Shown here in pieces: positions 660 through 41,060 of a stretch of DNA of 41,197 nucleotides (the stretch's first letter is position 1; each line of letters begins with the position of its first letter). The notes below the pieces were generated by a model. The model ran no database searches. It saw only the letters and a list, made by a program, of their open reading frames with translations, and was not told the origin of the DNA. This DNA comes from a virus. The DNA lies in IMG/VR virus record IMGVR_UViG_3300013103_000021, positions 1-41,197 of that record; one strand, 5' to 3'. Position numbers and translations under genes: made by a program.

Positions 660-778
660 AAACCCATACCATTGATTACATGTCCGACCCGCTCCATAAT
701 AAAGAGTCACCTCGCTCGCGAGGGCATTAAGTCCCGTGATCCTCTCCTCCTGAGCCTGAGCCAGCGCCTCGCGCCTCG

Positions 779-838
779 TTCCGTATGCATATGCAGTTCC
801 GTATGCATATGCAGTTCCATATGCATATGCAGTTCCAT
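779..838. repeat. 18-bp tandem repeat, about 3.3 copies
   Basis: The unit TTCCGTATGCATATGCAG occurs at 779-796 and 797-814; the third copy (815-832) has one G-to-A change, and a partial copy follows. Each unit contains the palindrome ATGCAT. Related words (CCGTATGCAGT) occur at 3076-3086, 3546-3556 and 3924-3934. Confidence 0.9.
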
Positions 839-902
839 AAAAAGATCTACCATAAATGACCTGACATGGCGCGTAGCGCCAGGCCCGAGCCATATGCAGT
901 TG

Positions 903-12256: not shown

Positions 12257-12285
12257 TTTACAAGTAATTTTAAACGCGATATAAT
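12257..12285 (+). promoter_or_regulatory. Sigma70-type promoter within the replication block
   Basis: -35 TTTACA (12257-12262), 17-nt spacer, -10 TATAAT (12280-12285). The A/T-rich upstream tract and GGGGTTTACAAG context match the promoters at 1848 and 7163. The next gene starts at 12313. Confidence 0.85.
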
Positions 12286-13542: not shown

Positions 13543-13991
13543 TTAAGATAGTCTTTCAGTATGTCGGACCTCATGGTAGGCACACGGAAGTGTACCAGGA
13601 TGGCGAGCTTGTGAGAGGTTACTTCTTCACTGACACCTCACCACTATTACTGTTATGGATAGCGTGTGATCTTAGGTACCAGAATGTAGCAGATGTGTTA
13701 AAGAACGAGACAGACTATCCAAGGAGGGATGACATATCAGAGAGCATTCTGGCTAGAGTAGGTGATAGGAGCTTATTCTCCAAATATGACGTTGTCTACG
13801 ATACACAGGCGATACCTAACGCTTACCTCTACCTGAAAGACTTGAAGCTAGCCCGTCCAATAGAATCCATTCTGGATTACATGGACAAACTGATTAAAAA
13901 GATTTGCAATGAACTTAACGATTATGACCTGGAGATAGAATATGGACTCGATGACCGAGATATTTATAAGAGTTGGAATCTTCAACCGTGA
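13539..13991 (+). CDS. Hypothetical protein (150 aa)
   Basis: GTG start at 13539 overlapping the stop of the previous gene (GTGA), typical of coupling in this genome. The N-terminal part looks beta-rich (IVFQYVG, TEVYQDGELVRGYFF); the C-terminal part is helical and acidic (MDKLIKKICNELNDYDLEIEY). No family recognised. It lies between the probable ssDNA-binding protein and the MazG-like enzyme, so a link to nucleotide or DNA metabolism is possible but unsupported. Confidence 0.65.
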   Translation: MIKIVFQYVGPHGRHTEVYQDGELVRGYFFTDTSPLLLLWIACDLRYQNVADVLKNETDYPRRDDISESILARVGDRSLFSKYDVVYDTQAIPNAYLYLKDLKLARPIESILDYMDKLIKKICNELNDYDLEIEYGLDDRDIYKSWNLQP

Positions 13992-14607
13992 GATTCTCAT
14001 GATTAAAGAGCCTGGAGGTAAGCTACAGAATATCAATAATGATATGGTAAAGTTACTCCATACACAATTAAAGGAGGAAGCAATAGAATACCAGGAATCT
14101 GTGAATGACGGCAACTTAGTGGATCAAGTTGATGCTCTTATTGACAGTATCTATTTTACCTTAGGAGGCTTGTATCGCCATGGTGTGACAACTCAAGGCG
14201 CTATTATCCTAGTAGATACTTTCTATGGTGATGACAAACCACTGGATATATCCATGTATGAGCACCTGAGTCATGGTGCGTTGCCAGTAGATAGCTCCAT
14301 AATCTGTGGAGACCTGGTAAGTAGTGCTGATCTCTATAGAAACATGTCTACGAGAGATGCTACAGTAACAGCGACAGGTTACTTAATCCAGTCGTTAGAA
14401 GTTGCAATGCTAGGCTTAATAAGTCTGAACATTGACGAGTCAACCTTTGTCAAGCTATTCTGTATTATCCATGAGGCAAATATGACAAAGGCCAAGGGCA
14501 AAGTGGCAAGCCGTCCAGGCTTTGAATCACCTGATGCCTGTAAGCCAGATAACTGGGTTGGACCAGAGGCTAAGATGCGTGAAGTCCTTGATGGTTTGTC
14601 TAAGTGA
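13942..14607 (+). CDS. MazG-like nucleotide pyrophosphohydrolase
   Basis: 221 residues resembling the all-alpha NTP pyrophosphohydrolase group (MazG / HisE-like) common in phages; these hydrolyse (d)NTPs to monophosphates. The metal-binding EExxE...ExxD pattern appears as LKEEAIEYQES then VDQVDALIDSIYFTLGGL. The C-terminal VHEANM-like box is IIHEANMTKAKGKV. The start overlaps the previous gene by 50 bases; Met4 at 13951 is an alternative. Residues about 95-150 (a Tyr/Ser-rich insert) are longer than in minimal relatives. It sits directly before a dNMP kinase, so the two probably shape the phage dNTP pool. Confidence 0.75.
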   Translation: MDSMTEIFIRVGIFNREILMIKEPGGKLQNINNDMVKLLHTQLKEEAIEYQESVNDGNLVDQVDALIDSIYFTLGGLYRHGVTTQGAIILVDTFYGDDKPLDISMYEHLSHGALPVDSSIICGDLVSSADLYRNMSTRDATVTATGYLIQSLEVAMLGLISLNIDESTFVKLFCIIHEANMTKAKGKVASRPGFESPDACKPDNWVGPEAKMREVLDGLSK

Positions 14608-15854: not shown

Positions 15855-15902
15855 ATGGTAACAGAACCTTTCATTAATTTTACTTACGAGGTACAATCAT
15901 GA
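15855..15902 (+). CDS. Possible 15-residue leader peptide
   Basis: ATG at 15855 with AGGAG six bases upstream, reading 15 codons and stopping with a TGA that overlaps the ATG of the PEP-CTERM gene (ATGA). The arrangement would couple translation of the exported protein to the leader. It could also be chance, since the downstream gene has its own GAGG site inside the leader. Confidence 0.35.
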   Translation: MVTEPFINFTYEVQS

Positions 15903-16552
15903 AAAAGTTATTAACAGTACTCGCACTGTCAGCTGTAGCTTCTACAGCTCTTGCCTATCCCTCTACTTATAATGGTATAGCGGATTCAGGTGACGAGCTT
16001 TGGACTCTCACTGACTCCAATGATGTTATGGATGACTCAGGGTTTACTCTGACGTTTGACCGTGGCAGTTTCAATTCTCCAGATCATACCTTTGGTTTTT
16101 ACCAGTATGACTTGGATAATGACGTTATCACTGGCTCCCTGGATATCTTCAGGGCTGGCGATTCTGTCGGAACTACCAGTAATGTCGTCTGGGATAATCC
16201 GGCTCAAACTGCGGCAACGCGGTACGGGTCTATTGACACATCGCTCGCGGATATGACCTTTGGGTTCTTCTTTATCAGTGACGGTGATACCTACTACAGC
16301 CAAGAGGTCCTCAATGGAGGTACTGACTACTTTGGTATGTACTGGGAGACAGACCCCTTCGTTGATGCCAACCTGTATGTAATAGGTAATGACGACGGTA
16401 ATCGCCATTGGAATTATGACCAGATGAGCGTATCTGCGAATGATGTTCGTCCAATAGACAGTATTACCACTCAGAACGTCCCTGAGCCTCTACCATTGGC
16501 TCTTATGGGTGCTGGCTTGATAGGCCTCAGGTTGTCTAGAAAGCTTCTATAA
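15899..16552 (+). CDS. PEP-CTERM sorting-signal exported protein
   Basis: 217 residues. N-terminal signal peptide: MKK, hydrophobic core, cleavage probably after Ala19 (ALA before Tyr20). The body is beta-rich and full of Asp, Gly and Thr, with TFGFYQYD- and TFGFFFISDGD-type strands. The C-terminus is a textbook PEP-CTERM tripartite signal: VPEP (194-197), a short hydrophobic Gly-rich segment (about 199-213) and basic residues RLSRK. In bacteria such proteins are processed by an exosortase and usually tied to extracellular polysaccharide or surface structures. No exosortase is encoded in the window, so the host must supply it. The gene lies inside the replication block, flanked by hairpins. 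It may be cargo altering the host envelope or blocking superinfection; this is inference. Confidence 0.9.
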   Translation: MKKLLTVLALSAVASTALAYPSTYNGIADSGDELWTLTDSNDVMDDSGFTLTFDRGSFNSPDHTFGFYQYDLDNDVITGSLDIFRAGDSVGTTSNVVWDNPAQTAATRYGSIDTSLADMTFGFFFISDGDTYYSQEVLNGGTDYFGMYWETDPFVDANLYVIGNDDGNRHWNYDQMSVSANDVRPIDSITTQNVPEPLPLALMGAGLIGLRLSRKLL

Positions 16553-17363: not shown

Positions 17364-17939
17364 ATGAGTTATAATGAGAAAGTCAAGCAGAGAATACTAG
17401 ATGGTGATCTTTCTAAGCCAACAGAATTATACCCGTTACTGATAGATGAGTTGGCTAGAGATAAGGTAGAAGTAGTCAAGTTTATCAATATTCAGATGAA
17501 GCTAAAGAACTACGTTGCCTGTTCCATACTGGATGTAGGAGGAGCGAATGGTCGTATGGTATCAGGGATTGATATACCAGTAAAGATCGTTATAGATAAA
17601 AGAGCTTTCGACCAACTGCCAGGCGTAAGTTATATTCACCAGGAGTATGGACATGATCTATCTGTAGCTGATGTCACCATGTTTTCAGAATTCCTCCACC
17701 TATTCTCACTGGAGAATATCGAGAAGTTTATCAAGAAATGTCAGTCCAGATACATAATCGTTGTAGAGAACAAGTACGACGATTTCTTAGACCTCAGGCT
17801 TAGACTCTGGTCTGGCGGGGCATGTATACCAGAAGGTTTCTTAAACGAGCTTACTGGAACTAAACCATATTACGTAAATGGTTACGGAGTATGGATCTTT
17901 AAAAACAAGAACTGGAGCGAGAGTAATGAAATCACTTGA
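17364..17939 (+). CDS. SAM-dependent methyltransferase-like protein
   Basis: 191 residues, ATG at 17364 after TTTGGAG. The CSILDVGGANGRMV segment (about residues 54-68) looks like motif I of class I methyltransferases (hyd-hyd-D-x-G-x-x-x-G). An acidic residue after IVIDKRA could be motif II, and VADVTMFSEFLHLF fits a motif IV region. The rest is not typical, and I cannot identify the substrate. It overlaps the thymidylate-synthase-like gene by 14 bases. A nucleotide, DNA or protein methylation role is all possible. The call rests on motif I alone. Confidence 0.5.
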   Translation: MSYNEKVKQRILDGDLSKPTELYPLLIDELARDKVEVVKFINIQMKLKNYVACSILDVGGANGRMVSGIDIPVKIVIDKRAFDQLPGVSYIHQEYGHDLSVADVTMFSEFLHLFSLENIEKFIKKCQSRYIIVVENKYDDFLDLRLRLWSGGACIPEGFLNELTGTKPYYVNGYGVWIFKNKNWSESNEIT

Positions 17940-18654
17940 ATGTTTAACCTTTATGGACGCGTTCTTAAGCTGTAACCGCGTGATATACAATGGGCCAACT
18001 GAATCCAAGAAATCTAGGACAGGCGATACTGTAGGAACGCATGCACTGTCGTATCTAGTAATGGATGCTTCCAGCTATGACTTCTTCGATTCCATAGAAG
18101 GAAGGATCACCCGTGAGTATGCAGAGAGCTTCTGGCAGTTCATGATTAGTGGAGGTACTAATGCCAGTGAGAATTTTAAGAAGTGGGCAGGTACTAGCCA
18201 ATTCTATAAGAAGTCTGAGGATTCTGGCTTGCCAGATAATTTCAATACCCTCTACGGGCCAAGGATAATCAAACAGATCGATGCTCTAATCGAGGAGCTC
18301 AATGATAATCCTGACACCAGAAGGGGAGTTGTGCTAATCCTCGATGCCAACGATCAGATGTTACTGAATAAAGATGAGACCGTAGAATATCCATGTACCA
18401 TAGGTACGGTCTATTTCTTGTATAAAGGTAAGCTCTGCGCGCATTGTCTTATGCGCTCGCAGAATATGGCTACGGTCGCACAACTAGACATGTACCTCCA
18501 AGGTAAACTACTGGAGCATGTCGCGCGGCGCTTAGGGCGTGATATCGGGTCATTCTATTCAACCATTACTGATGCCCATATTTACATGAAAGATATTGCT
18601 TACGTAAGATTAATACTGGAGAAACATGGTGATAACTCTTTACAAAATAGATAA
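17926..18654 (+). CDS. Thymidylate synthase / dCMP hydroxymethylase family enzyme
   Basis: 242 residues from the ATG at 17926 (GGAGCGAGAG upstream). Family marks: NPDTRRGVVL, catalytic Cys157 in EYPCT, RSQN at 177-180 and TDAHIY near the end. Spacings equal those of E. coli ThyA: C157 to R177 is 20 residues and R177 to D188 is 11, matching C146, R166 and N177. Thus Asp188 replaces Asn177, as in T4 dCMP hydroxymethylase, and the Cys-Thr pair also resembles T4 gp42. Asn180 stands where both families normally keep Asp (D169). It may therefore act on a cytosine nucleotide or have changed chemistry. Neighbours are a deaminase, a methyltransferase-like protein and ligase. Confidence 0.8.
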   Translation: MKSLECLTFMDAFLSCNRVIYNGPTESKKSRTGDTVGTHALSYLVMDASSYDFFDSIEGRITREYAESFWQFMISGGTNASENFKKWAGTSQFYKKSEDSGLPDNFNTLYGPRIIKQIDALIEELNDNPDTRRGVVLILDANDQMLLNKDETVEYPCTIGTVYFLYKGKLCAHCLMRSQNMATVAQLDMYLQGKLLEHVARRLGRDIGSFYSTITDAHIYMKDIAYVRLILEKHGDNSLQNR

Positions 18655-33140: not shown

Positions 33141-33920
33141 TTACGCCACCACTTCAGCAGTAAAGTCACAGTCAGGGATCATACCGTGAGCTTTCTCAGT
33201 GTTAACAACAAGAGACCAGTCAACAGACATCTGACGATTTTCTGCCAGGCCAGTCTTAGCCAGAGGATCAGTACGGTAACCTTTAAGGTAGCACAATTCC
33301 AGATACTCAGGATCGAGGATGAACACGATCGCTGAATCGTCAGCAGCCGCAGTAGTCTGCTTTTGCTGTAGACGGTTAGGAACAATATCCAGTGTACCAA
33401 AATCAGTCACGAATACATTAACTGAGCCAAGAGCTGTAGCTTTCTCAGCAGACTTGCCCTGATCACTCATCAGAGTAGCAACGCGAGCTGAGGAAGTAAA
33501 CAGATACTCAGAGAACTTACGGCAGAGACCAGGAATAGTCATCAACTTAGTAGCGTTGCCACCATTGTTGTAGATTTCTTCAACCACGTCTCGAACAGCT
33601 GTCTCAGACAGTGCCGATACAGCAGTTGCAGGAGTATAAGCTACAGTCAAGCCAGTACCGGGGTCAAAACCACCAACCGCGCCGCCAGCACCAAGAACAG
33701 TGTTGGTCTCTAACCATGAAGGAAGACCACCTACCTTACCTGCGATCGCGTCCCCGTTATCAGCTACAGAAGCCTGATTCTCAAGAGCGATTGCCTCAAC
33801 ATCACGGCGAAGCTCTTGCTGACGACGCATTACCTGGTAAGATAATTCCTTGGCACGACCGATGGTATCAGACGCATCAGCACGATAAGATACACGTACG
33901 ATTTTATCAGAGATTTGGTG
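33141..33920 (-). CDS. Major capsid protein, exon 2 (C-terminal part)
   Basis: SU10-family major capsid protein (PF17236), residues 89-347 of the spliced product. Exon 2 begins HQISDKIVRVSYRAD, continuing exon 1 in the same frame: GN-H-H-QIS at the joint matches the GNYxQIS pattern of the family. Further marks: AGRxxELxYQ-like IGRAKELSYQVMRRQQELRRDVE, NGGNATKLMTIPG, and a C-terminal LAKTGLAENRQ end block. The in-frame ATG upstream of the exon lies in the intron. The spliced length (347) agrees with family members. Confidence 0.92.
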   Translation of the reverse strand, partial: HQISDKIVRVSYRADASDTIGRAKELSYQVMRRQQELRRDVEAIALENQASVADNGDAIAGKVGGLPSWLETNTVLGAGGAVGGFDPGTGLTVAYTPATAVSALSETAVRDVVEEIYNNGGNATKLMTIPGLCRKFSEYLFTSSARVATLMSDQGKSAEKATALGSVNVFVTDFGTLDIVPNRLQQKQTTAAADDSAIVFILDPEYLELCYLKGYRTDPLAKTGLAENRQMSVDWSLVVNTEKAHGMIPDCDFTAEVVA

Positions 33921-34784
33921 CGTTAATCTTATGAGCAACATTTTAATCACTTGCTCCTACAACTCTCGCTGTAGACGAGACTATATCATCAACCAATTTG
34001 TTACCCTTTGCAAGATTCTCAGCAGCAGTTATTATTCTCATATTTGTGTGCACATGAAACCCGCACACGTTCTTACCATTCAGTGGAATAATGTGATCCA
34101 CATGATGTAATACGCCAGTTACCTGTGAAACCAGTCTGCAAGCTATATAAAGCTTATTAACCTCGTCCTCATCGTACCAAGGAGGCATTGCCTGTATGAC
34201 TGATCTTCTACGCTTGATATTAGCCTTTTGAAAGGAAGCGGGATTTTTGAGGTAAGCTTCGTGCCGGTAAGCTGCAGGTGACCCTGCTTTCTCAATCTGG
34301 CACTTCTCAATTATCTCTTTAGTTCTTTCCGCGTTATCTTTGGTCCACTTGACTTGTCTTTTATTGATCTCGCTCTGGTGCTTATCGCGATACCTTTTAG
34401 ACTTAGCCTTTCGCTTACTAGGATCTTCCTTATGTTTAGCCTTTATCTTATCTCCATAGCACTTCTTACAGTGCGCCATGAAGGTTCCTCTGGCTTTTAT
34501 GAAATAATAATCGTCTTGCTCTTTCTCTTTATCACAAACAGTACATACTTTGGTTGTTCCGCGCTCGTGGGCCTTCATCGTCTGTTCTAGACTGTGTGAC
34601 CTAGTCGTTGGACCTTCTACTTCTCCCGAAGCAGCTTGGCTGCTGATTGTCTCTACCCTTAATTTCTCAAGCTTTTCCATTTAAGATCACTCTTTCTGTT
34701 TTAGCATTAAGGTTTGACAAGATGTCCCAGCAGTTCACGGAATTATTCACTTGAGGCTTACGCCGCCAAGGCCACCTGAATTTG
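33921..34784 (-). other. Group I intron in the major capsid gene
   Basis: 864 nt on the minus strand. The 5' exon ends in U (CAU), the intron ends in G, and removing it restores the capsid frame. P1 is seen as CCAU|C pairing with GGUGG across a 7-nt loop, with a U-G wobble at the splice site. Core elements: P GAACTGCTGGGA near 34725-34736, Q CAATCAGCAGCC (34649-34638), R GTCCAACGACTA (34613-34602) and S GATATAGTC (33987-33979). R and S can pair through GACTA/TAGTC to make P7. Q, R and S lie inside the HNH frame. Self-splicing is not proven here but every diagnostic feature is present. Confidence 0.9.
33943..34680 (-). CDS. HNH homing endonuclease inside the capsid intron
   Basis: 245 residues in the longest reading. 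Zinc-binding CTVC...CKKC (46-49, 71-74), a very Lys/Arg-rich linker helix (about 75-160) and a C-terminal HNH domain: HHVDHIIPL (192-200), then GFHVHTNMRI and NLAKGNK. This is the common phage HNH family. The first 34 residues and the last ~15 are encoded by intron core elements, so the functional protein may start at Met35 (34578), although that Met lacks a clear ribosome site. Such enzymes copy their intron into intronless capsid alleles. Confidence 0.9.
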   Translation of the reverse strand: MEKLEKLRVETISSQAASGEVEGPTTRSHSLEQTMKAHERGTTKVCTVCDKEKEQDDYYFIKARGTFMAHCKKCYGDKIKAKHKEDPSKRKAKSKRYRDKHQSEINKRQVKWTKDNAERTKEIIEKCQIEKAGSPAAYRHEAYLKNPASFQKANIKRRRSVIQAMPPWYDEDEVNKLYIACRLVSQVTGVLHHVDHIIPLNGKNVCGFHVHTNMRIITAAENLAKGNKLVDDIVSSTARVVGASD

Positions 34785-35048
34785 ATGGTTACCTACCCTG
34801 TTGCCAGTCGCTGTGTTATTGCCAGTTGCATCCGATCCATCAACCACAGCATTTGTGACGTCAGGCGAGGCCAGCTCGTCAGTGGTCCACTCTTTGTATT
34901 CTTGCTTGGCAGAACCAGTGCCAACCATGTCTGTGAAAGGAAGAGGGATTTTGGAAATGTCCCAAATCTTGTTCATGACGTCTTCACGAATCAAGCCACC
35001 ATGTTCTACGGCTTTTAAGTTTGCGCTATCTAAATTTGCAGTACTCAT
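34785..35048 (-). CDS. Major capsid protein, exon 1 (N-terminal part)
   Basis: Residues 1-88 of the SU10-type capsid protein, ATG at 35048 with AGGTGG seven bases upstream. Contains the N-terminal arm (LIREDVMNKIWDISKIPLPFTDM) and the WTTDEL...GNRVGN segment that precedes the conserved QIS block. Without splicing, translation would add eight codons and stop at 34758, giving a 96-residue dead product, so splicing is essential for virion assembly. Confidence 0.92.
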
Positions 35049-40306: not shown

Positions 40307-40451
40307 CAGTCTTACATATGATATTTATTCATAAGGAATGGCCAACTAATAACCAAATCTTCCAGATAGAGGGTTCTACCATAATGGACCTTCCATAATT
40401 GACAAACCTTGGTGACGTGGTGATATGTTGGCTGAAAATAAGCCCTAAGTG

Positions 40452-40566
40452 TGCTCACGGCTGATGCAGCGTGTGCTAGCCCCACAGGAAGGGCTTAAGT
40501 GATGAATTATCCAAGTTTATTTAAAGTTGGCTGGTGGACCCCTGGGGACCAAGGTTGTGCCAAAGT
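40452..40566. repeat. Right arm of the ~115-bp imperfect inverted repeat
   Basis: Partner of 903-1017 in opposite orientation (see that entry). Contains the CCCCTGGGG palindrome and the TTTATTTAAAGTTGG block. Confidence 0.75.
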
Positions 40567-40964
40567 GGCCCTTCCATAATATACACTGACAAACCCCCTG
40601 GCGCCAAGCGCTGACGTATTCGAGTGTTTTTGGTATAGGTTTCCTAAAAAATTTTTTTAAATTAGTGTTTCGAGAAACGAGACACTTGGCCCCAGGCGCC
40701 GAGGGCACAGTAGGGAGAGAATAAATAAAAGATAAGGCCCCCCCTCCCCTTCCTGATCCAGGCTCCTGTCCTGTGTCTAGCTACAGCGCTTAGTGAATAG
40801 AGACAGACATCCGAAGCCAGAAGAATAAGATAGAATAACAGAAGCAAGTAAGATTGACAATGATAGTCACCATTATTATTGGCAAGATTAAGACTAAATC
40901 ACAGTGCATGGCGATTAGCGGTAAGAGGCTGTCCAATGTCAAGGTCAGTGTCGATATTAGTACC

Positions 40965-40994
40965 AGTATCGTATTACCAAGTATCGTATTACCA
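40965..40994. repeat. 15-bp tandem repeat, two copies
   Basis: The unit AGTATCGTATTACCA is repeated exactly at 40965-40979 and 40980-40994. Confidence 0.95.
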
Positions 40995-41060
40995 TAAGAT
41001 CTAATCACCATGCTCCAAGCGCCAAGCGCCACGGTCTCAGCTCTTGAACCCTTAGATGGT

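What the first reader, a model, noticed from the sequence alone, without database searches (positions are those of the whole stretch)
15899..16552. Phage-encoded PEP-CTERM exported protein
The protein has a clean signal peptide and a textbook C-terminal VPEP, hydrophobic, Arg/Lys tail. PEP-CTERM proteins are known as bacterial surface proteins processed by exosortases. A copy inside a lytic-looking phage's replication block, without an exosortase gene, implies that the phage feeds its own substrate into the host sorting pathway. It could coat the infected cell, change adhesion or exopolysaccharide, or block superinfecting phages. I do not know of a described function for such a phage protein.
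Basis: partly seen in the sequence, partly recalled or inferred. Interest (0 to 1): 0.85.

Follow-up and report, generated by a model that had tools for sequence, protein, structure and literature searches.

The report
Phage gene for exosortase-tagged surface protein
A virus of bacteria carries a gene for an exported protein with the address tag that bacteria use to place proteins on their surface, and a database scan shows that many unrelated bacterial viruses carry such genes, which suggests that viruses often use this host pathway to alter the surface of the cells they infect.

Summary
ORF 15899-16552 encodes 217 aa with a signal peptide, an acidic core and a C-terminal VPEP-hydrophobic-basic tail (PF07589 21.0 bits, cut-off 20.7; TIGR02595 below cut-off). 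It lies in the replication/nucleotide block of a podovirus-like phage related to Cronobacter Ss1 and Vibrio VA-RY-3. It is absent from those phages and from 50 other related viral records, and has no detectable homologue, so here it is an accessory gene. But it is not a lone accident. Among 80 held loci, neighbours include portal, terminase, ThyA, primase and exonuclease genes; the families examined are under purifying selection (dN/dS 0.09-0.34); eight loci have two or more copies; and one (L189) places two PEP-CTERM genes in a homologous MazG-tmk-ThyA-dCMP-deaminase cluster. None of 50 such records encodes an exosortase. I found no paper describing phage PEP-CTERM proteins. The host link is weak: the phage contig and the bin's only exosortase contig both look foreign to the bin's main organism. 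Most likely the protein is exported, sorted by a host exosortase and alters the envelope; export, sorting and benefit are inferred.

The parts
15899..16552 (+). PEP-CTERM protein gene, 217 aa
   Evidence: ORF; PF07589 21.0 bits, cut-off 20.7
15888..15892 (+). ribosome-binding-like GAGGT
   Evidence: read from the sequence
15899..15955 (+). signal peptide MKKLLTVLALSAVASTALA
   Evidence: sequence and hydropathy; cleavage after ALA is inferred
15956..16477 (+). acidic mature domain, no detectable homologue
   Evidence: no match; composition
16478..16549 (+). C-terminal sorting tail: VPEP (16478-16489), hydrophobic stretch, basic end
12257..12285 (+). promoter-like TTTACA-17-TATAAT within a repeat found three times in the phage (near 1820, 7135, 12229), ahead of the gene run that includes the PEP-CTERM gene
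   Evidence: function inferred
13942..14607 (+). MazG-like nucleotide pyrophosphohydrolase, neighbour with a homologue in the L189 cluster
   Evidence: phrog_671; blastp E 6e-7 to L189
14604..15095 (+). thymidylate-kinase-like P-loop protein, neighbour with a homologue in the L189 cluster
   Evidence: phrog_761; blastp E 8e-6 to L189
16746..17279 (+). dCMP deaminase, neighbour with a homologue in the L189 cluster
   Evidence: phrog_174; 46% to L189, E 8e-35
17878..18654 (+). thymidylate synthase, neighbour with a homologue in the L189 cluster
   Evidence: phrog_160; blastp E 9e-8 to L189

Best explanation
An accessory phage gene that makes a Sec-exported protein with an exosortase address tag. 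Shown: the ORF, the tail match, phage-like coding composition, the position in the nucleotide-metabolism gene run, and recurrence of such genes in many viral lineages, under purifying selection where families could be measured and without an exosortase in 50 records. Inferred: it is made while the infected cell is still active, crosses the inner membrane by its signal peptide, is held there by its C-terminal helix, is cut and passed on by the host's exosortase, and ends on the outer surface or in the exopolysaccharide layer. There it alters the envelope of the infected cell, most likely to hinder competing phages or to change contacts with other cells and the matrix.
For: Signal peptide plus tail, acidic Lys/Cys-free core. 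Phage-like composition and placement among replication genes. At least 119 IMG/VR stretches with the pattern; 79 of 81 have a short tail with basic residues, a feature the pattern did not ask for; neighbours are phage hallmark genes; dN/dS 0.09-0.34; tandem copies and a homologous nucleotide cluster with two PEP-CTERM genes in L189; no exosortase in 50 such records. In bacteria the PEP-CTERM protein PepA shifts exopolymer from soluble to bound and supports flocculation (PMC9850573).
Against: No homologue of this very protein and none in the phage's relatives, so selection on this copy cannot be measured. PF07589 is passed by only 0.3 bits and TIGR02595 is not passed. The true host and its exosortase are unknown. 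Neighbouring genes differ between phages (replication, packaging, nucleotide genes), so one shared time of expression is not implied.
Confidence: 0.5

Rival explanations
1. Passenger: a host PEP-CTERM gene picked up by chance, of no use to the phage.
For: Absent from relatives and no homologue; the genes are common in environmental bacteria.
Against: Phage-like composition, intact ORF with ribosome-binding site in a compact gene run; similar genes recur next to homologous neighbours in L189, and families elsewhere are under purifying selection.
Confidence: 0.22
2. Inner-membrane protein that works without exosortase: signal peptide and C-terminal helix leave the acidic domain anchored in the periplasm, where it blocks DNA entry of other phages.
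For: The topology needs no sortase; no exosortase is shown in the true host.
Against: A plain anchor does not need the VPEP motif; PEP-CTERM type tails recur across viral families, although the pattern selected for them.
Confidence: 0.15
3. Decoy substrate that loads the exosortase and lowers display of host PEP-CTERM proteins.
For: Substrate without sortase; two or more copies in eight of 80 loci.
Against: In the large family the whole protein, not just the tail, is under purifying selection with conserved core residues, more than a decoy would need.
Confidence: 0.08

Closest known systems
Bacterial PEP-CTERM proteins sorted by exosortase (EpsH), e.g. PepA of floc-forming bacteria (PMC1569441, PMC9850573)
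   Same: Signal peptide, no internal membrane span, PEP motif, hydrophobic stretch and basic end; core without homology to known families
   Different: Encoded by a phage, alone, without exosortase; the full-length PepA model is far below its cut-off (23.4 vs 80 bits)
PEP-CTERM genes in IMG/VR viral contigs (L117-L196)
   Same: Same tail and signal peptide, phage gene neighbours; L189 and L196 also lie beside thymidylate genes
   Different: The mature domain of the window protein is a singleton among them
Cronobacter phage vB_CsaP_Ss1 and Vibrio phage vB_ValP_VA-RY-3
   Same: Terminase about 50%, portal about 47%, ligase about 39%, scaffold, capsid and tail genes
   Different: Different replication genes; no PEP-CTERM tail in any frame

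Membership tests
PEP-CTERM proteins | N-terminal signal peptide | tested here: met
   Sequence and hydropathy; no SignalP run
PEP-CTERM proteins | C-terminal PEP motif, hydrophobic stretch and basic end by the Pfam model | tested here: met
   PF07589 21.0 bits, cut-off 20.7
PEP-CTERM proteins | C-terminal domain by TIGR02595 | tested here: inconclusive
   14.0 bits against a cut-off of 16
PEP-CTERM proteins | No membrane span between signal peptide and tail | tested here: met
   Hydropathy
PEP-CTERM proteins | Exosortase in the same cell | tested here: inconclusive
   One XrtD-type exosortase on a contig that looks foreign to the bin; phage host unknown
PEP-CTERM proteins | Cleavage and surface delivery by exosortase | not testable with these tools
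   Needs an experiment
Phage accessory (moron-like) genes | Present in the phage but missing from close relatives, own translation signal | tested here: met
Superinfection exclusion proteins | Expression blocks adsorption or DNA entry of other phages | not testable with these tools
   Needs an experiment

The most novel reading that the evidence does not exclude
Phages of exosortase-bearing bacteria commonly carry their own PEP-CTERM substrates, often in nucleotide-metabolism or packaging gene runs and sometimes in tandem, and use the host exosortase to rebuild the surface of the infected cell: an undescribed general strategy of which this gene is one case.
Probability: 0.4. Interest if true: 0.75.

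Novelty: new variant of a known kind. Interest (0 to 1): 0.6.

Why it matters
Exosortase sorting is widespread in environmental bacteria, but what its many substrates do is poorly known. Phage-borne substrates kept by selection would tie the pathway to phage-host conflict or to infection inside flocs and biofilms, and would give small movable test proteins for it.

Tried and rejected
tblastn of the whole protein in phages (no match) and plasmids (two hits at E 0.2-0.5), and peptide-pattern scans of viral and genome contigs (none confirmed). tblastn of a generic PEP-CTERM tail in phages found nothing, but low-complexity filtering may make this a poor negative. AlphaFold2 of the window protein alone failed (pLDDT 36). 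The 22-member viral family gave a fair beta-rich model (pLDDT 78) with no significant fold match. Host assignment through related terminases in named genomes gave only hits of at most 45% identity in mixed taxa. GGCC-rich sequence beside the gene was checked as a possible repeated element: one copy only.

Full report
OBSERVATION. ORF 15899-16552 (+) encodes 217 aa preceded by GAGGT. Residues 1-19 look like a Sec signal peptide; residues 194-217 read VPEPLPLALMGAGLIGLRLSRKLL. PF07589 is passed narrowly (21.0 vs 20.7 bits), TIGR02595 is not (14.0 vs 16). In the whole assembly (2.12 Mb, 170 contigs; the window is contig C12) there are only two PEP-CTERM hits: this one and a different protein on C8. 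The core is acidic (net -24), has no Cys or Lys and no internal hydrophobic stretch, and its codon use and GC match the phage genes around it.

SETTING. Scans of 30 window proteins show a podovirus-like phage: packaging, head and tail genes on the minus strand; DNA polymerase, exonuclease, helicase, MazG-like, tmk-like, dCMP deaminase, ThyA and ligase genes on the plus strand. No integrase was among the matches. The nearest isolates are Vibrio VA-RY-3 and Cronobacter Ss1 (terminase about 50%, portal about 47%). A repeat with TTTACA-17-TATAAT at 12257-12285 lies ahead of the gene run that holds the PEP-CTERM gene.

IS IT CONSERVED IN RELATIVES? No. 80 IMG/VR loci with related terminases were found. 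Fifty records, nearly all of them from this set, were scanned whole with PF07589 and none matched, including a 42.5 kb relative (G043) that shares terminase, portal, capsid and ligase genes. A tail motif search in six frames of VA-RY-3, Ss1 and most of G043 also found none. The protein itself has no detectable homologue in phages, viral contigs or genomes, and only two hits at E 0.2-0.5 in plasmids.

IS IT A ONE-OFF? No. Features that the pattern did not ask for confirm them: 79 of 81 tails are 20-40 residues long with at least two basic residues near the end, and 66 belong to ORFs of at least 100 aa with a signal-like N-terminus by a simple hydropathy rule. These 66 and the window protein all match PF07589; only one matches any PHROG family. 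Neighbouring proteins (121 scanned) include portal, terminase, thymidylate synthase, primase, Sak4-like annealing protein and exonuclease matches. Examples: L129, PEP-CTERM in an overlapping gene run near an annealing protein, exonuclease and DNA polymerase; L173, directly before the portal; L196, two overlapping PEP-CTERM genes that run into thymidylate synthase; L189, MazG-like, tmk-like, ThyA-like and dCMP deaminase genes followed by two overlapping PEP-CTERM genes. The L189 cluster genes are homologous to those around the window gene (E 6e-7, 8e-6, 9e-8, 8e-35). Eight of 80 loci hold two or more PEP-CTERM ORFs. IMG/VR contigs can include host flanks, so not every one of the 119 need be viral; the named examples are judged by their neighbours.

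SELECTION AND MOVEMENT. Clustering of mature domains gives families of 29 and 12 and many singletons; the window protein is a singleton. In the family pairs that could be compared dN/dS is 0.09-0.34. Members about 90% identical lie near different packaging gene families (L137 and L152, L153 and L161), so these genes seem to move between phage types and be kept.

EXOSORTASE. None of 50 PEP-CTERM-bearing viral records matches the exosortase family. The bin has one exosortase, an XrtD-type exosortase-EpsI fusion on the 4.4 kb contig C109; XrtD is named for VPLPA tails, not VPEP. C109 correlates 0.17 with the bin bulk in tetranucleotide use, against 0.59 for a 5.7 kb contig. The phage contig gives 0.34, against 0.64-0.73 for most 20 kb contigs, though one long contig (C3) also gives 0.37; phages often differ from their hosts, so this is only suggestive. 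Among 292 genomes of the class none has a full-length relative of this exosortase above 29% identity, and none but the bin itself has a related terminase. The host of this phage, and whether it has an exosortase, is open.

MECHANISM. By the known anatomy of the family (PMC1569441) the protein would be exported, held by its tail and handed to exosortase. In bacteria, PepA shifts exopolymer from soluble to bound and supports flocculation (PMC9850573). The simplest reading for the phage is a change of the infected cell's envelope that hinders competitors or alters contacts with other cells. Presence and maintenance are shown or well supported; export, processing and effect are inferred. The model of the large viral family is a beta-rich domain between two terminal helices without a significant fold match, so it does not tell the activity.

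LITERATURE. Full-text searches for PEP-CTERM or exosortase together with phage, bacteriophage, prophage, viral contigs, auxiliary metabolic genes or phage-encoded showed no paper that describes a phage-encoded PEP-CTERM protein, judged by titles, abstract openings and passages read in PMC12642866 and PMC4886054. Most subscription papers and preprints are not in that library.

VERDICT. Observation confirmed; interpretation partly supported. New variant of a known kind: a known sorting signal, apparently undescribed as a recurrent phage-borne class.

Noticed in passing
window 33957-34804 (-), between 34758-35048 and 33141-33950: The major capsid gene is split: its two parts match adjoining parts of the Ss1 capsid gene, and between them lies a group I intron match (RF00028, 43.4 bits, gathering 50, E 1.7e-9) that holds an endonuclease VII-like ORF 33943-34680.
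   Followed up: partly
window near 1820, 7135 and 12229: An 84-base repeat in three copies with TTTACA-17-TATAAT, probably phage promoters at the heads of gene runs.
   Followed up: no
window 778-839, 843-1195 and 40372-41029: Short repeats near both contig ends, including GTTCCGTATGCATATGCA units and GCGC-rich inverted motifs.
   Followed up: no
L196:1101-2434, L189:7345-8759, L142:3387-5353: Tandem PEP-CTERM genes in viral contigs; L196 and L142 hold three each.
   Followed up: partly
L016 (bin contig C109): Short contig with an XrtD-type exosortase-EpsI fusion and a wecB-like epimerase; looks foreign to the bin.
   Followed up: partly
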